Positions 16,544 to 24,430 of a stretch of 37,813 nt of DNA are shown here, in pieces. The stretch comes from Caldalkalibacillus uzonensis. Its GTDB lineage: Bacteria > Bacillota > Bacilli > Caldalkalibacillales > Caldalkalibacillaceae. A program made the translations under genes and the position numbers. The stretch covers positions 1-37,813 of the forward strand of contig NZ_JAUSUQ010000018.1 of assembly GCF_030814135.1 (NCBI RefSeq), read 5' to 3'. Under the pieces are notes generated by a model. That model worked only from the letters and a program-made list of their open reading frames with translations. It did not search any database and was not told where the DNA came from. Positions within the stretch are counted from its first letter, which is position 1. Each line of letters begins with the position of its first letter.

Positions 16544-18508
16544 TTAAGAAGCCACATTATCAGACGTGTTTAGCTTAGTCTTAAACGTCAACTTCTGCAG
16601 CAAATAGGCAACACCTAAAAGGAAAATACCGATAGTATCTGTATAGAGTCCTGGTTTTATTAATGTGAGGGAGCCGGCCAGCAACAGCAAACGTTCATAC
16701 CAAAGTGTTTGGCGAACTAACCATCCCTCTACAGCTGCAGCCATACCGGTTATCCCGATAATGGCCGTCATGACCGTCACCATTATTTTAACGGTATCCC
16801 CCACCAAGAGTAGGGAGGGTCCATAGACAAACATATAGGGGACAATAAAAGCCGCTATTCCCAGACGCAATGCCACCATCCCCGTGCGCATCGGCTCAGA
16901 CCCGGCAATACCCGCAGCCGCAAAAGCAGCCAAGGCAACAGGCGGGGTAATCGCTGATATGATGGCAAAGTAGAAGACAAACAGATGGGCGGCAATCGGG
17001 GTAACACCCAATTCAATCAAGGCGGGAACCGTTAAAGCGACCTGAACGATATAAGCGGCAACTGTAGGCAGTCCCATGCCCAAGATAATGGAAGTCAGCA
17101 TGGTAAAAATGAGGGTAAGCAACAAGCTTCCCCCGGCCAGAGAAATAATCATACTGCTGAATTTCAACCCTAAACCTGTCAGCGTAATAACCCCGATCAC
17201 CAAACCTGCTGCCGCACAGGCAATGGCTGTTTCCAAAACTGCTCTTGCTCCCAGATCCAAGGCCTCAATCATTTGTTTTAATTTGAGGCGCGTGACTGCT
17301 TTGGCCATCGCTACCAAGATAATGGCAACAATGGCGTACAAACCGGCCCGCATGGGAGAATAACCTTGAACCAGCATGACAACGATAACTATCAGAGGAA
17401 TGAAAAAGAGAAAGCCGGTTTTGAGCAGTGTTTTGACAGAAGGGATCTGATCCTTGCTCAAACCTTGCAAGCCTTGCCTCTTTGCCCTTAAATCGACCTG
17501 GACAAACAAACATAGATAATAAAGAATGGCCGGAATCAGGGCCGCAATGGCCACCTCAATATAGGTAATCCCCAGGTAAGAAGCAATAATAAATGCTGCT
17601 GCGCCCATGATGGGCGGCATGATCTGTCCGCCGGATGAGGAGACAGCTTCAACTGCACCTGCAAACTCTTTTTTGTAGCCTGTTCTTTTCATGAGCGGAA
17701 TGGTAAAAGCACCAGTGGTCACCGTATTGGCCACAGCACTTCCTGAAATCGTCCCCATCAGTGAACTGCCGATAATGGCTGTTTTAGCCGGCCCTCCCCT
17801 ATATTTGCCCATCAAGCCCACAGCCAAGTTAATAAAAAACTGGCCTGCCCCGGAGATCTCCAAAAACTTGCCGAACAGCACAAACATAAAAATAAATGTG
17901 GCCGAAACCCCCAATGGAATGCCAAACACACCAGACGTGGTATAAAACAGATGGTCAACCACCCACATCAGCGTAAACTCGCGGTGAGATAAAACCCCCG
18001 GCAGATGATGTCCCCAGACCGCATAAGCCAAGCTAAGAATCACGATTATTGTTAATGCATGGCCTACTGCACGTCTGGTTGCCTCAATGATCAGTAAACA
18101 TGCAGTTAAGCCAATTGCGATTTGCAGCCCAGTCAGCTTCTCAATATAAGACATGCGTGAAACAATATCCTGTCCGTTTACGAAGAAATAAGCAAAAACG
18201 CTAATAGATAATATAATGGCCATCCAATCGAACCAGGCAATTTTCTCTTGGTTAGAGTTTCTCCACGGACGATACACAGCAAAAATAAGCATCAACGAAA
18301 ATCCTAAGTGCATGGATCGCTGCATAAAAGATTCGAAGATGCCAAAGACAGCCGTATAGAGATGAACCAGTGACATGAGAACGGCGATGACGGACACCAA
18401 ACGTCCTTGCCAACCGTTCAAATCACGGCATTTTTCCGTCAATCCCAACTCCTCTTCTGCCTTTTTCCCCCTGTTTGGCAGCACAGGCTTAACCATTAGC
18501 CGTGACAC
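16544..18508 (-). CDS. TRAP transporter permease, fused 4TM/12TM type
   Basis: A 654-residue fused DctQM-type permease and paralogue of the one at 10941-12938. Conserved stretches are GTISGSAVANTVTTGAFTIP, SSGGQIMPPIMGAAAFIIASY and ILGMGLPTVAAYIV. It pairs with the lipoprotein gene at 18584-19609. The start is probably the GTG at 18506-18508, with an AAGGAAGG site upstream; an ATG four codons later is possible. As the last gene of unit C it is co-transcribed with a 3-oxoacid CoA-transferase, so the imported acid may be a ketoacid or hydroxyacid that is activated by CoA transfer. That link is inference. Confidence 0.92.
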   Translation of the reverse strand: MSRLMVKPVLPNRGKKAEEELGLTEKCRDLNGWQGRLVSVIAVLMSLVHLYTAVFGIFESFMQRSMHLGFSLMLIFAVYRPWRNSNQEKIAWFDWMAIILSISVFAYFFVNGQDIVSRMSYIEKLTGLQIAIGLTACLLIIEATRRAVGHALTIIVILSLAYAVWGHHLPGVLSHREFTLMWVVDHLFYTTSGVFGIPLGVSATFIFMFVLFGKFLEISGAGQFFINLAVGLMGKYRGGPAKTAIIGSSLMGTISGSAVANTVTTGAFTIPLMKRTGYKKEFAGAVEAVSSSGGQIMPPIMGAAAFIIASYLGITYIEVAIAALIPAILYYLCLFVQVDLRAKRQGLQGLSKDQIPSVKTLLKTGFLFFIPLIVIVVMLVQGYSPMRAGLYAIVAIILVAMAKAVTRLKLKQMIEALDLGARAVLETAIACAAAGLVIGVITLTGLGLKFSSMIISLAGGSLLLTLIFTMLTSIILGMGLPTVAAYIVQVALTVPALIELGVTPIAAHLFVFYFAIISAITPPVALAAFAAAGIAGSEPMRTGMVALRLGIAAFIVPYMFVYGPSLLLVGDTVKIMVTVMTAIIGITGMAAAVEGWLVRQTLWYERLLLLAGSLTLIKPGLYTDTIGIFLLGVAYLLQKLTFKTKLNTSDNVAS

Positions 18509-18542
18509 CTGCCTTCCTTTACAGAGTGATTATTTAAGTGAG

Positions 18543-18566
18543 AGGAAGGGGAAGTGCCCCCTTCCT
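18543..18566 (-). promoter_or_regulatory. GC-rich hairpin between TAXI and TRAP genes (unit C)
   Basis: AGGAAGGGG and CCCCTTCCT form a nine-base stem with a six-base loop, between the stop of the TAXI gene (18584) and the start of the permease gene (18508). No T-run follows. Its position copies the hairpin at 13023-13041 in unit B. Confidence 0.58.
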
Positions 18567-18583
18567 TGTTCCTTCCTTGGCTG

Positions 18584-19609
18584 CTATTCAATTAAACCCA
18601 ACTCACGGTAGTATTTTTCTGCTCCGGGATGATAGGGGCCTATATTATGTTCAACTGAATACTTTGCATTAAAATCCTTTAAATCATTGGAAAGGGTTGC
18701 CCAGCGCTCCTGCTGTTCAAAGATCATTTTGGTCAACTCATATCCTGCTTCCTCACTCAATAGATCTGTACTGGCCAAGAGCACTGTATAACTGGCTACG
18801 GTTTGTGCATCTTCTTTGAAGTTAGCGTATGTCTCTGCCTCCACAGTATAAGGCAAGTAACCCTCATTGATTTCACCCAGTGCCTGTATCGTAGACTCTT
18901 CTAAAGAGATAAGACGGATACCAATGGTCGTGTCCAATTCCTGAAACGTGGAAGCAGGGGCAACCAACATGCCTGCAAAGGCATCTATATGCCCATCTCT
19001 GATCAAGTTGGCCGCATCAGCCGTCCCCACATATTCAACTGCTGCCAAATCATCATAACTCATGCCGTGAATATCCAGAATCTGTTGGAAAGCAATCTCC
19101 CCGCTATACCCGCGGATTCCCGGGCTAACCCGCTTTCCTTTCAGATCTTCAATGGTGTAGATATCCGAGTCCGCTCTGACCACAAATTGCATCACATTGG
19201 GGTACATGGTTGCTATGGTCCCGAAATTGGCAATAGGTTCTTCAAACGCCTTCAGTCCGTTTAACGCTTCTGGAATGGTTTGTCCGTTGCTGAAAGCGAT
19301 AACAAAACTGCCGTCACCTAACCCCAGCAGATTGGCAACCGAGCCCCCTTCGACAACAGTAACCGAGGATTCAGGAAATATTTTTTGAATTTCTTCACCC
19401 ATCGCACCGGCCAGGGTGTACCAAAAACCGCCTACTGTGGCTGCTCCAAATGTGAAATCGGCAGGAACCTCAGGTGTCGCACTTTCACTTTGGTTTCCTT
19501 GCCCTTGTTGTTCCTCTTCTCCATTCGTTCCTGTGTCGGTGCTTCCCCCACAAGCGGCTGCTGCCACCACCAGCATACCCAATAACATGATCAATAAAAC
19601 TCTTTTCAT
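18584..19609 (-). CDS. TAXI-family TRAP transporter solute-binding lipoprotein
   Basis: An extracytoplasmic solute receptor of about 341 residues. The open frame begins 21 bases earlier, but the signal peptide starts naturally at MKRVLLIMLL (ATG at 19607-19609). It runs through a hydrophobic core to a lipobox ending AAAC (C20 from this start). A low-complexity Glu/Gln/Gly linker follows. The mature domain has FGAATVGGFWYTLAGAMGEEI and VVEGGSVANLLGL, the TAXI signatures. The gene lies between the CoA-transferase B subunit and the second fused permease. It is only distantly similar to the TAXI protein at 13044-14066, so a different ligand is plausible. Confidence 0.91.
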   Translation of the reverse strand: MKRVLLIMLLGMLVVAAAACGGSTDTGTNGEEEQQGQGNQSESATPEVPADFTFGAATVGGFWYTLAGAMGEEIQKIFPESSVTVVEGGSVANLLGLGDGSFVIAFSNGQTIPEALNGLKAFEEPIANFGTIATMYPNVMQFVVRADSDIYTIEDLKGKRVSPGIRGYSGEIAFQQILDIHGMSYDDLAAVEYVGTADAANLIRDGHIDAFAGMLVAPASTFQELDTTIGIRLISLEESTIQALGEINEGYLPYTVEAETYANFKEDAQTVASYTVLLASTDLLSEEAGYELTKMIFEQQERWATLSNDLKDFNAKYSVEHNIGPYHPGAEKYYRELGLIE

Positions 19610-19648
19610 CTCAAAGATCCACTCCTCCATCCGTATTGGTAAATAAGT

Positions 19649-21376: not shown

Positions 21377-21904
21377 ATGGATGTCTTTTTAAACGGTATG
21401 GTTTTTAGCCTTTTTGCCTTATTTTTGCTTTCATCGTTACAGAAGATCGTTCATCTCCGCCATTTTTTAGACACCGTTACAGCATACAACATTTTGCCCC
21501 AGTCCATAGCCCGGGTTGCTGGTGCACTCATCCCTTTTCTGGAGCTGGCCGGGGCAATTTTGCTCACTTCAGCAAAAACAATGATGTACGGCGCTACCAT
21601 CCTCATTTTTTTGTTGTTGTCTTTTTTGTTTGCAGTTGTGCAAGTGATAAAAACTAAACGGAACGTCATCTGCGGCTGTTACGGGCGTTTTTTGGAGGCA
21701 CAGGCCGATCTGTTTACTTTGGTGAAAATCTTTGTACTGCTTATTTTAACATTCGTCGTCATCCTAACCCCACCAAATGATGCCGCTGTATATACCCCTT
21801 TGTCGGTCAGCATCGGCCTCTTTCTGACCGGTATGATTTTACTTTGTCAAAAAATATGGACACACCATCAACACACCATGCGCATCTTAAGAAGCACAAA
21901 ATAG
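21377..21904 (+). CDS. MauE/DoxX-like redox-associated membrane protein
   Basis: A 175-residue membrane protein with four to five hydrophobic segments (about 7-21, 48-65, 69-90, 112-131 and 139-157). It has the family motif CGCYG at about residues 98-102, in the position of the CGCFG of MauE-type proteins, which support disulfide formation in the methylamine dehydrogenase light chain. The N-terminal half resembles the DoxX-like fold (FLLSSLQKIVHLRHF). It is the first gene of a plus-strand cassette and is followed after nine bases by a thioredoxin-like gene. The pair very probably works as a thiol-oxidising module at the membrane. Family good; role in this organism inferred. Confidence 0.78.
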   Translation: MDVFLNGMVFSLFALFLLSSLQKIVHLRHFLDTVTAYNILPQSIARVAGALIPFLELAGAILLTSAKTMMYGATILIFLLLSFLFAVVQVIKTKRNVICGCYGRFLEAQADLFTLVKIFVLLILTFVVILTPPNDAAVYTPLSVSIGLFLTGMILLCQKIWTHHQHTMRILRSTK

Positions 21905-21916
21905 AGGTGGACTGTG

Positions 21917-22531
21917 ATGGACCAGGTATTATTATACTCCAACATTCTTTTATGGCTGACTCAGGCCGTCGTTTTCTTTTCGCTGTTCTTGCTTTTCAGG
22001 CAGTTTGGTGAGGTTTACTTAAGTACAGGGGAAGGCATTTCCAGAGACGGGATTCCAATCGGCGACACCATCCCGCAGTTTCAAGGGGTTTCTTATCCTG
22101 CTGGAAAGGTGACAACACCAATCCAACAGTATGATAAACCCACCCTGCTTGCTTTTGTCTCGCCAAGATGTAAGGCCTGTGAACAGCTGCTGCCCGCATG
22201 GAACGCAGCCCATGAAGCTTTTCATGATCGGATTCATTTTGTGATAATCGGGCTGGGAGAGAAGGAAGAATTTGAACGGTGGCTGATGGACCGGACGCTG
22301 CAGGGGCAACTTGTCCTTGATCCCGGCAGACACATTTTCTCTTTGTGTAAGGTGCGGGTCACCCCGTTTGCTTTTATCATCGATGAACAGGGTGTTGTGC
22401 GGGGCAAAGGGTTATGCAATCACGAGGGTCATCTTAAAACATTGCTCAGCACTCTTGAAGGTGAGCCGAGGGATGGCATGATTGACAGGGAGACCAGTGA
22501 TCATACGTCGGAAAATAAACCTGCGGGTTGA
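21917..22531 (+). CDS. MauD/TlpA-like membrane-anchored thioredoxin
   Basis: About 204 residues. An N-terminal membrane anchor (about 8-28) is followed by an extracytoplasmic redoxin domain. The redox motif is CKAC in FVSPRCKACEQLLPAW, and the cis-proline loop is VTPFAFIID. The overall layout matches MauD, which with MauE handles the disulfides of the methylamine dehydrogenase light chain. The open frame starts at GTG, but the ATG at 21917-21919 has better spacing to GAGGTGG. The stop overlaps the region just before the next gene, so the two are tightly coupled. It could instead be a generic ResA/TlpA reductase, but the neighbours favour MauD. Confidence 0.8.
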   Translation: MDQVLLYSNILLWLTQAVVFFSLFLLFRQFGEVYLSTGEGISRDGIPIGDTIPQFQGVSYPAGKVTTPIQQYDKPTLLAFVSPRCKACEQLLPAWNAAHEAFHDRIHFVIIGLGEKEEFERWLMDRTLQGQLVLDPGRHIFSLCKVRVTPFAFIIDEQGVVRGKGLCNHEGHLKTLLSTLEGEPRDGMIDRETSDHTSENKPAG

Positions 22532-22548
22532 GAAAGGAACGAAAAGCC

Positions 22549-22974
22549 GTGTTTGACCTGTTTCGAGGTGAAAAAACGGACCGCCTGGCCAGGGTTGTTG
22601 CTGAACATACGGCACGCAGCGTACACAATAAAGCATTGTTTGAAGGTGTGTTCAACACTTTGATCCGTTTTGCAACCAACCCGTTTAACGTCCGCTCTGT
22701 GTCCACTGAGTGGTGTGAGGTATGGTATTCAGCAGGGGATTGCTATTTTCCCTATGGCCAAGGAACATGTGCCGCCTGCAGGGAAGATGCCCCCTGCCCT
22801 GATGGTTATCAGCTGTCCTTTGCTTATGATTATACTTCCACAGGCTGCTGGTGTGTCGCTCAATCCCCCTATATCACCAAAATTTGCTGCGACTGCACCC
22901 CTCACTGGAACAATCCTTATGTACGGCATCCTTTAGATTGCCAATGCAGCCAAACCGTCTATCATGAGGTGTAA
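22549..22974 (+). CDS. Methylamine dehydrogenase light chain (MauA)-like 12-cysteine protein
   Basis: From the preferred GTG (AAAGGA ten bases upstream) the protein has 141 residues. Twelve cysteines sit at 56, 65, 74, 77, 83, 100, 102, 113, 114, 116, 131 and 133. Paracoccus MauA also has twelve, forming six disulfides, and shares a comparable order including the adjacent CC pair. The leader DRLARVVAEHTARSV resembles the MauA leader around its twin-arginine site, though the RR pair is lost. By a cysteine-anchored hand alignment the tryptophans that form TTQ (W57 and W108 in Paracoccus) are not tryptophan here; the residue before the cysteine aligned with C109 is aspartate. No heavy chain is nearby. 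It is probably an exported disulfide-rich protein of unknown function rather than an amine dehydrogenase subunit. Confidence 0.68.
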   Translation: MFDLFRGEKTDRLARVVAEHTARSVHNKALFEGVFNTLIRFATNPFNVRSVSTEWCEVWYSAGDCYFPYGQGTCAACREDAPCPDGYQLSFAYDYTSTGCWCVAQSPYITKICCDCTPHWNNPYVRHPLDCQCSQTVYHEV

Positions 22975-22978
22975 TGCG

Positions 22979-23650
22979 ATGCTCAGTGAATATATACTGC
23001 TTGCTTTGGCTCTAATAGCTGGAAGCTCCAAAATCTGCACCTTGTGAGGGGTCAATGTGACGCTTGCCGTCTTACCCCTCGGTGAGGAGGACAGATGGAA
23101 ATTAATTTTAAAAAGATACGCCGTCTACATGCTCATCGCTCTATTAGGCGGAGGGATAGCGGGTTTTTGTATAACGGCGTTAATTTTTCTTTTGACCTTT
23201 TGGTTCCCTGCCCCCTTTAAGTTGCTTATTGTGCTGCTCCTTGGTATGCTGTTTATTTTGTATGAATTTAAAGTGATCCGCTTGAATCTGCCCCAGTTTA
23301 AATGGCAGATTCCTGCTTCCTGGCTTAGGGCCTCCCAAACAAAAAATATGATGGTATGGGGTTTCATATTGGGGGCAGGTTTTTTCACGTATGTGCCCTA
23401 TACGACGTTTTATATGCTGTACGTGTACATCGGGATTTTTGAGCAACCTTACTCCGGACTGTTGTTTGGGATGGTCTATGGGCTGAGCCGGACACTGCCG
23501 ACATTGGCGATCGTCCTGTTGAGAAAAATGAACATGTTGTCCGACGAACAGCTGATCAAAAGGATGTGGAGAGCCAAGAATGCCATTCATGCTGTCAATG
23601 GTGTCATGCTCATCATCGTTATCTTTCACTTGATGATGACACAGATTTAA
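22979..23650 (+). CDS. Multi-TM protein with an in-frame TGA (possible CxxU), CcdA-like topology
   Basis: An ATG at 22979 with GAGGTG upstream opens a frame that stops after 22 codons at TGA (23045-23047). The same frame then runs without interruption to 23650. Read through, it gives about 223 residues with six hydrophobic segments, the topology of CcdA/DsbD-like membrane electron carriers. Without the first 22 codons it has five. The TGA falls at the last position of C-T-L-x after the first segment, so decoding as Sec or a TGC/TGT ancestor would give a CxxU or CxxC motif. A GTG at 23057 behind GAGGGG could start a separate 197-residue protein. No family was recognised with certainty; its place in the cassette suggests a redox partner. 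Confidence 0.6.
23045..23081 (+). promoter_or_regulatory. Hairpin starting at the in-frame TGA
   Basis: GAGGGGT (23046-23052, beginning inside the TGA codon) pairs perfectly with ACCCCTC (23074-23080). Inside it GACG (23059-23062) pairs with CGTC (23068-23071) around a five-base loop. The position fits a bacterial SECIS element, but the loop lacks the expected early G. The stem also covers the GAGGGG site of the GTG at 23057, so control of reinitiation is an equally good reading. Confidence 0.45.
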
Positions 23651-23671: not shown

Positions 23672-24430
23672 TTATGCTTTGGGACCCCCGGCCACATACA
23701 GGACCTGGCCGTTAACAAACGAAGCCTCTTCTGAGGCAAAGAATAAGGCGGCGTAGGCAATATCCTCAGGCTTGCCAGACCTTCCTACTGGAATCGATTG
23801 AATGGCCATTTGCCTGAACTGCTCAAAGTCTACCCCCACTCTGGCAGCGGTTGCTTTTGTCATCTCTGTCTCAATAAAACCAGGTGCGATGGCATTGCAG
23901 GTGATGCCAAATTTACCAAGTTCAATGGCCAAGGTTTTGGTAAACCCCTGCAAACCAGCTTTGGCCGTGGCATAATTGGCCTGGCCCCTGTTTCCCAAGG
24001 CTGACGTGGAGGAGAGATTGATGATTCTCCCATACTTTTGTTCCACCATATATTTTTGCGCAGCCCGGCTGCAATAAAAGGCTCCTTTTAAATGGACATC
24101 CATCACTTGCTCCCAGTCTTCATCCGTCATTTTAAATAACAGGTTATCGCGGATAATGCCTGCGTTATTAACCAGGATATCCAGGCGCCCCCACATACTG
24201 ACAATGCTGTCCACCGTTTTTTCCACCTGACTGCGGTCTGTCACATCACAGCGCAAAGCCATCACCGTCAATCCTTCGTTCTCCAGTTCCTGCCCGGCAG
24301 CCTGCACCAGTTCCTCATTGATATCCGCCAGACACACTTTCGCCCCTTCCTGGGCCAAACGGGTGGCAATCGCTTTGCCGATTCCCCGGCTGGCCCCCGT
24401 TACTAAAGCTACTCTGTTTTCCAAACGCAT
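23672..24430 (-). CDS. Short-chain dehydrogenase/reductase, FabG-like
   Basis: A 252-residue classical SDR. It has the cofactor motif TGASRGIGKAIA, NNAGIIRD, the catalytic serine in LSSTSALGNRGQ and YATAK with the active tyrosine and lysine. DINEE after the second strand points to NAD(H) rather than NADPH preference. It resembles 3-oxoacyl-ACP reductases and acetoacetyl-CoA reductases. It lies just downstream of an acyl-CoA ligase gene and is probably co-transcribed with it, so an acyl-CoA substrate is likelier than acyl-ACP. It is convergent with the plus-strand cassette, with only 21 bases between the two stops. Confidence 0.88.
   Translation of the reverse strand: MRLENRVALVTGASRGIGKAIATRLAQEGAKVCLADINEELVQAAGQELENEGLTVMALRCDVTDRSQVEKTVDSIVSMWGRLDILVNNAGIIRDNLLFKMTDEDWEQVMDVHLKGAFYCSRAAQKYMVEQKYGRIINLSSTSALGNRGQANYATAKAGLQGFTKTLAIELGKFGITCNAIAPGFIETEMTKATAARVGVDFEQFRQMAIQSIPVGRSGKPEDIAYAALFFASEEASFVNGQVLYVAGGPKA

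What the first reader, a model, noticed from the sequence alone, without database searches (positions are those of the whole stretch)
21377..23650. Orphan MauE-MauD-MauA-like cassette without a heavy chain
The order membrane redox protein, membrane thioredoxin, 12-cysteine light-chain-like protein, six-TM protein looks like the disulfide-maturation part of the methylamine dehydrogenase system. However, no heavy chain, MauG or amicyanin is present in the window. The set could be a self-contained system that makes and exports a six-disulfide protein with a new role, such as electron carrier, metal or sulfur handling, or a secreted effector.
Basis: partly seen in the sequence, partly recalled or inferred. 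Interest (0 to 1): 0.78.

Follow-up and report, generated by a model that had tools for sequence, protein, structure and literature searches.

The report
Hidden selenoprotein in Mau-like disulfide operon
A four-gene bacterial operon that looks like the toolkit for folding a disulfide-rich exported protein turns out to carry a membrane protein whose internal stop codon almost certainly encodes selenocysteine, so a gene that is normally read as truncated is probably a new selenium protein.

Summary
The MauE, MauD, 12-Cys and membrane-protein cassette is real: the four genes cluster in 9 of 398 sampled genomes of the class. The main result is new. All 9 copies have it at the same aligned position; 3 of 9 lack the start codon just after it. 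All 9 genomes carry selA, selB and tRNA-Sec (selA: 85 of 398). A SECIS-like hairpin follows at 33-34 nt in 9 of 9. The protein is homologous to MauF and to CcdA/DsbD, and the TGA aligns with MauF's Cys (7 of 7). A Thermomicrobium plasmid gene reads WSP-TGA-GYS where MauF reads WSPCGYS. Conclusion: a selenocysteine form of MauF, not in a 2026 review's table of 119 families. The 12-Cys protein is a distant light-chain relative without the second cofactor Trp; no heavy chain was found in 9 genomes (search without positive control). Best reading: a Sec-based relay for disulfides of an exported light-chain-like protein. Not shown: selenium incorporation, function of the product.

The parts
21377..21904 (+). 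MauE-like membrane redox protein (CGCYG motif)
   Evidence: PF07291 E 4e-20; homologue in 8 of 8 other cassettes
21914..22531 (+). MauD-like membrane-anchored thioredoxin-fold protein (CKAC)
   Evidence: TIGR02661 71.4 bits, below cut-off 188.6; homologue in 8 of 8 other cassettes
22528..22974 (+). 12-Cys protein, distant light-chain relative; TTG start overlaps the MauD stop (a GTG at 22549 is an alternative start)
   Evidence: W62, W108 and 10 of the 12 Cys invariant across 9 rows
22979..23650 (+). MauF-like (CcdA/DsbD-fold) predicted selenoprotein gene, full length through the in-frame TGA
23045..23047 (+). in-frame TGA, predicted selenocysteine codon
   Evidence: same aligned column in 9 of 9; aligns with MauF Cys
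23067..23098 (+). SECIS-like hairpin, apical loop GGT at 23081-23083, 33 nt after the TGA; -13.7 kcal/mol with its lower stem, core alone -5.2
23059..23071 (+). short upstream hairpin; the window has one compensatory pair change against the other 8 copies

Best explanation
The cassette is a stand-alone Mau-type disulfide-maturation operon whose MauF-like subunit is a selenoprotein. SelB, tRNA-Sec and a hairpin just after the UGA recode it as Sec (supported by comparative sequence, not by chemistry). The Sec sits in the first transmembrane segment at the place of the conserved Cys of MauF and of CcdA/DsbD. The second CcdA Cys is missing, so the protein works with a single chalcogen: it would form a mixed selenide-sulfide with MauE (CGCYG) or MauD (CxxC) and pass oxidising or reducing equivalents across the membrane (inferred). 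MauD then makes or shuffles the disulfides of the 12-Cys protein after export, by Tat in at least some relatives (inferred from the leader and one neighbourhood). What the finished protein does is open; a small exported electron carrier or redox partner is my first guess.
For: All 9 copies have exactly one in-frame TGA at the same column; in 3 of 9 the next in-frame ATG/GTG/TTG is only 15, 19 or 41 codons later. SelB and tRNA-Sec over cut-off in 9 of 9, selA in 9 of 9 against 85 of 398 overall (6.5e-7 by genomes, 0.0017 by genera if independent). A hairpin 33 or 34 nt after the TGA in 9 of 9, loop GGN in 8 and GTA in 1; 95.6% of cells paired, slid versions at most 58.9%. MauF homology: hhalign 60.1 against at most 21.3 in 30 permutations; Cys invariant in 7 of 7 MauF. 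Thermomicrobium roseum: WSP-TGA-GYS against WSPCGYS. CcdA-like set: 60.8 against at most 21.5 in 30 permutations. TatA and TatC genes inside the cassette of 1 of 9 genomes.
Against: No Sec/Cys switch inside the close family: all 9 have TGA. Hairpin stability beats synonymous recodings only modestly (p 0.005 to 0.28 per gene, and 2.6 to 23% of recodings also fit the SECIS model; combined about 1e-4 for 6 representatives if independent); the window's core hairpin misses the -7.5 criterion; of five pair measures two were reached by column shuffles (41 and 176 of 500). With Sec masked, the hhalign match to MauF no longer reaches TM1, though MAFFT still puts it on the Cys. In the three closest pairs the N-terminal segment has more nonsynonymous than synonymous codon changes (9:3, 10:6, 10:2). 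The tRNA-Sec model also passes its cut-off in 5 of 14 control genomes, so it is not specific alone. Two genomes (G001, G004) have the Sec machinery without the cassette. T. roseum Sec machinery untested. Structure models too poor to use.
Confidence: 0.72

Rival explanations
1. The TGA is a true stop: a short leader ORF ends there and a separate membrane protein restarts just after it by translational coupling.
For: 6 of 9 copies have an in-frame start codon within 4 codons after the TGA; the mechanical ORF call starts there; the N-terminal segment evolves fast.
Against: 3 of 9 have GCG in place of GTG and no start for 15, 19 or 41 codons, while the motif right after the TGA stays conserved; in at least 4 of 9 a strong ribosome-binding site, read by eye, precedes the upstream ATG; MauF and CcdA carry this segment in one protein with Cys at this spot.
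Confidence: 0.05
2. The TGA is read as Trp or another residue by ordinary readthrough, without selenium.
For: UGA readthrough by near-cognate tRNA is known in general (recalled).
Against: All 9 bearers have selA, selB and tRNA-Sec; the aligned residue in MauF is Cys in 7 of 7; a SECIS-like hairpin follows in 9 of 9.
Confidence: 0.03
3. It is a remnant or divergent amine dehydrogenase: a quinone-bearing light chain plus an unrecognised heavy chain elsewhere.
For: Gene order E-D-A as in Paracoccus and in a Pseudomonas amine dehydrogenase cluster; distant light-chain similarity; the T. roseum cluster keeps a PF02975 protein.
Against: PF06433 in 0 of 9 genomes (uncontrolled); first TTQ place is Trp or Tyr and the second has no counterpart in the alignment; outside the four genes no neighbour is shared by more than 3 of 9 loci, opposite-strand ORFs over the cassette itself aside.
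Confidence: 0.12
4. Sequencing error or pseudogene in the window.
For: A lone TGA in one draft genome would look like this.
Against: Same TGA in 9 genomes of 7 genera, and a like TGA in a complete T. roseum plasmid record.
Confidence: 0.01

Closest known systems
MauF of the methylamine utilisation operon (Paracoccus denitrificans WP_011750949)
   Same: Homologous over 168 columns; Cys/Sec at the same TM1 place; in one operon with mauE, mauD and a light chain
   Different: Sec instead of Cys; shorter N-terminus; gene last instead of first; no mauB or amicyanin gene in the cassette
CcdA/DsbD_TM family (PF02683)
   Same: Profile similarity over 207 columns; Sec at the TM1 [ST]PC Cys (Sec written as C)
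   Different: No Cys in the second half (YIPH, YVPY or YVPF there); PF02683 itself does not hit any of 9 members
Methylamine / aralkylamine dehydrogenase light chain (PF02975, TIGR02659)
   Same: Cys-rich domain with CPxG, leader similarity, place after mauD
   Different: No PF02975 or TIGR02659 hit; second TTQ Trp without counterpart; no heavy chain found
Selenoprotein operons Sao and Tso, incl. TsoB, a rhodanese/DsbD fusion-like selenoprotein (PMC13188914: outline, sections 5, 7 parts 1-2 of 3, and 9 seen)
   Same: Sec in operon-encoded redox or membrane proteins
   Different: NCBIfam, which holds models for these families by the review's table, gives no selenoprotein hit for 9 of 9 members; the motif TxUGxN(V/A)T is not in Table 1

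Membership tests
Bacterial selenoprotein | In-frame UGA conserved among homologues | tested here: met
   9 of 9
Bacterial selenoprotein | Cys-containing homologues at the UGA position | tested here: met
   MauF 7 of 7 (alignment); only distant, 18-19% identity to the window protein
Bacterial selenoprotein | bSECIS: loop 3-9 nt, stem 4-16 bp, G in first two loop bases, spacing 16-37, MFE at most -7.5 | tested here: met
   Geometry 9 of 9; core energy 8 of 9, the window only with its lower stem; excess over synonymous recodings modest
Bacterial selenoprotein | Sec machinery in the genome | tested here: met
   selB, tRNA-Sec, selA in 9 of 9; T. roseum not tested
Bacterial selenoprotein | Selenium in the protein | not testable with these tools
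   needs mass spectrometry or Se-75
MauF | Sequence homology with Cys or Sec in TM1 | tested here: met
   hhalign 60.1, control at most 21.3; 59.1 with Sec masked, over later columns only
MauF | First gene of a mau operon with mauB | tested here: not met
   Last of four or before Tat genes here, no mauB in the cassette
CcdA/DsbD | Two redox Cys, one in each half | tested here: not met
   Only the TM1 site (Sec); no other invariant Cys in A1
Methylamine dehydrogenase light chain | PF02975 / TIGR02659 profile match | tested here: not met
   0 of 9 members
Methylamine dehydrogenase light chain | Two TTQ Trp | tested here: not met
   First place Trp or Tyr, second without counterpart; TTQ roles recalled
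Methylamine dehydrogenase | Heavy chain in the genome | tested here: inconclusive
   PF06433 0 of 9, but no control genome rang
Methylamine dehydrogenase | MauG | not tested
   no search made

The most novel reading that the evidence does not exclude
A new selenoprotein class: Sec-MauF serves an operon that builds an exported, heavy-chain-free light-chain-like protein, possibly with its own protein-derived cofactor made from the conserved aromatic residues (W62, W108 and the Trp/Tyr at the first TTQ place), and Sec stands in for the MauF Cys in two distant lineages (the window's class and Thermomicrobiota).
Probability: 0.25. Interest if true: 0.92.

Novelty: new variant of a known kind. Interest (0 to 1): 0.8.

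Why it matters
I found no assigned mechanism for MauF. A Sec form, at the TM1 redox site of the CcdA/DsbD fold, points to the residue that does the chemistry and makes the Mau relay testable with selenium chemistry. It adds a membrane selenoprotein family whose genes are cut short when UGA is read as stop (as in the T. roseum record), and a sparse but recurrent orphan light-chain-like protein.

Tried and rejected
Pattern scans of genome contigs with the 12-Cys protein and with the full membrane protein found no relatives. Plasmid searches with the 12-Cys protein and the cassette DNA found nothing; with the membrane protein one hit at E 0.8. Six weak 12-Cys hits (E 0.003-0.01), G126 (E 4e-4) and G535 (E 6e-4) were treated as noise and left out of the counts of 9. 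Weak ArsG, MFS and PP-kinase hits rejected. The PDB search with the 12-Cys profile gave only ribosomal protein S3 at E 0.07 or worse. The T. roseum light chain against the 12-Cys profile: 5.5% probability. Rfam at gathering thresholds: no match in the window. A SelB search of plasmids did not settle T. roseum: 186 records matched, the 40 listed do not include it. Papers on T. roseum and selenocysteine gave no statement on its machinery (passages of PMC4918011, PMC5330540, PMC5029168).

Full report
Observation. They lie between oppositely directed CoA-transferase genes and a short-chain dehydrogenase gene.

The fourth gene is longer than the ORF call. Reading upstream from 23057 in the same frame gives MLSEYILLALALIAGSSKICTL, a TGA, and then GVNVTLAVLPLGE. 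In a sample of 398 genomes of the class the 12-Cys protein is found at E 3e-14 or better in 9 (six more at E 0.003-0.01 I take as noise), and a profile of the full membrane protein finds the same 9 at E 7e-95 or better, each with exactly one TGA inside (one more at 4e-4 taken as noise). In the window's own order 1 of 5 genomes has the 12-Cys protein; in the order of G212, 7 of 42 have the membrane protein, all seen before; in 398 genomes of the phylum only the window's own gives a strong match.

All 9 copies show the TGA at one aligned column with conserved residues on both sides: A-G-x-(T/S) before, U-G-x-N-x-T-L-x-V-x-P after. Six copies have a start codon within four codons after the TGA; three do not (next at 15, 19 and 41 codons). 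At least 4 of 9 have a GGAGG-type ribosome-binding site, read by eye, before the upstream ATG. Differences in the 15 codons before the TGA, pooled over 36 pairs that are not independent, are 217, 142 and 325 at codon positions 1, 2, 3. Against this, over the whole N-terminal segment the three closest pairs have more nonsynonymous than synonymous codon changes (9:3, 10:6, 10:2), so that tail is loosely constrained. A stop with a restart still does not fit the three copies without a start.

Selenocysteine machinery. Of 13 genomes tested, SelB is over cut-off in 11 and tRNA-Sec over cut-off in 11; all 9 cassette bearers are among them. Of the 4 tested genomes without the cassette, G002 and G003 lack both and G001 and G004 have both. 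The tRNA-Sec model passes its cut-off in 5 of 14 control genomes, so it is not specific by itself; the bearers' best hits score 63.8-73.9 bits against a cut-off of 47, the next hit anywhere 51.6. selA is over cut-off in 85 of 398 genomes, including 9 of 9 bearers, and in 1 of 14 controls: chance 6.5e-7 by genomes, 0.0017 by genera, if independent, which they are not fully. In the window's genome selB and tRNA-Sec lie about 1 kb apart.

SECIS. The 2026 review (PMC13188914, section 5) gives the bacterial model: loop 3-9 nt, stem 4-16 bp, G in the first two loop bases, 16-37 nt from the UGA, MFE at most -7.5. In 9 of 9 genes such a hairpin lies 33 nt (8) or 34 nt (1) after the UGA, with loop GGT, GGC or GGG in 8 and GTA in 1; 8 of 9 pass the energy limit with the core hairpin, the window (-5.2) only with its lower stem (-13.7). 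On the alignment 95.6% of cells pair and slid versions reach at most 58.9%; cells with changes on both sides and the covariation score exceed all 500 shuffles, but pairs with such changes (3) were reached by 41 and pair types by 176 of 500 shuffles. Against synonymous recodings the stability is unusual but not extreme (p 0.005-0.28 per gene; 2.6-23% of recodings also fit the model); combined about 1e-5 for 9 genes, 1e-4 for six representatives, if independent. The T. roseum gene also has a possible hairpin, without comparative support.

Homology. MauF came from 7 of the 15 plasmid records that matched. The new family matches it: hhalign score 60.1 against at most 21.3 for 30 column permutations and 21.2 reversed. 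The Sec column aligns with the Cys of STWSPCGYS, invariant in 7 of 7. As C was written for Sec, I masked it: the score stays 59.1, but hhalign then aligns only the later 100 columns, while MAFFT still puts the masked position on the Cys in 7 of 7. In T. roseum (NC_011961, locus L061) the protein annotated WP_012643071 continues upstream in frame through TGA: MTLWLVPLALASGCSALWSP-U-GYSMVDVLG; its ATG overlaps the stop of a MauD-like gene. WSPUGYS against WSPCGYS is the clearest Sec/Cys pair. This cluster also holds a PF02975 light chain (E 9e-9) and a MauE domain in a 596-aa protein. Whether T. roseum has Sec machinery I could not test.

Fold. A joint profile (6 of 9 Sec forms, T. roseum, 4 of 7 MauF) hits 20 of 319 phylum genomes, the window's own included. 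Of 12 proteins examined out of 19 foreign loci, 11 have a first-half [ST]PC and 10 a second-half one; hhalign of the Sec family to this set scores 60.8 over 207 columns (30 permutations at most 21.5) with the Sec, written as C, on the first Cys. The two tested by Pfam are PF02683 DsbD_TM. The second Cys has no counterpart: the Sec family reads YIPH (7), YVPY or YVPF there. So MauF and this protein look like CcdA/DsbD-fold proteins with one chalcogen.

The 12-Cys protein. It matches a light-chain alignment (8 of the 9 loci fetched, from 31 matching records) with hhalign score 41.8, 87%; the Cys domain alone gives 26.3, 34%, against at most 18.4 in 50 permutations. Its N-terminal part aligns with the light-chain leader; 3 of 9 (L018, L019, L021) keep RRxFLK or RKxFLK, recalled as Tat-like, the window copy does not. 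In G160, TatA and TatC genes (PF02416, PF00902) stand between the mauF-like gene and the 12-Cys gene. The first TTQ place is Trp or Tyr, the second has no counterpart. PF06433 is in 0 of 9 genomes, a search whose controls also gave nothing.

Mechanism, with status. Shown by sequence: conserved in-frame UGA, Sec machinery, homology to MauF and CcdA. Inferred: Sec insertion, Sec-S exchange with MauE or MauD, maturation of the exported 12-Cys protein. A passage in PMC7794033 says MauE has been speculated to help form the disulfides of the amine dehydrogenase beta-subunit and reports mauE and mauD homologues in putative peptide clusters of genomes without other mau orthologues, so orphan Mau parts have been seen before.

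Novelty. Table 1 of PMC13188914 (119 families; seen whole in parts 1 and 2 of section 7) has no such family, and NCBIfam gives no selenoprotein hit for 9 of 9 members (weak ArsG and kinase-domain hits only). Literature searches, seen as capped listings, showed nothing on a selenocysteine MauF; the library is open-access only. The deep-Sep paper (PMC12013277) was searched for words, with five passages seen: no 'mau', 'membrane', 'Bacillus' or 'Bacillota' in its main text.

Noticed in passing
L061 (NC_011961.1 473850-490068): Thermomicrobium roseum plasmid cluster with a light-chain protein, a 596-aa protein with a MauE domain, a MauD-like protein and a TGA-containing MauF whose public annotation is truncated; 390-460-aa hypothetical proteins nearby might be heavy-chain-like (guess, no Pfam support beyond a weak PQQ_2 hit).
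   Followed up: partly
L018:9206-13989 (G160): A TatA-TatC gene pair lies between the mauF-like and the 12-Cys gene, and a second TatC with a TatA-like stretch lies on the other side of the cassette.
   Followed up: partly
L017:9057-9536 (G203): The 12-Cys gene ends in a shifted frame (TDVAAAG instead of TDCGCGW); a fitting ending is readable in another frame, so a frameshift or sequencing error.
   Followed up: no
window 22528-22630: The window's 12-Cys leader lacks the RR/RK-x-FLK motif that 3 of 9 copies keep, so its export route is unclear.
   Followed up: no
G001 and G004: A same-genus and a same-order genome have selA, selB and tRNA-Sec but no cassette was found in them.
   Followed up: no
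window 23672-24430: The short-chain dehydrogenase gene beside the cassette has relatives in the flanks of L022 and L023, farther from their cassettes.
   Followed up: no
window 16544-19630: Fused TRAP-type transporter and a lipoprotein solute receptor (names by eye) next to CoA-transferase subunit genes.
   Followed up: no
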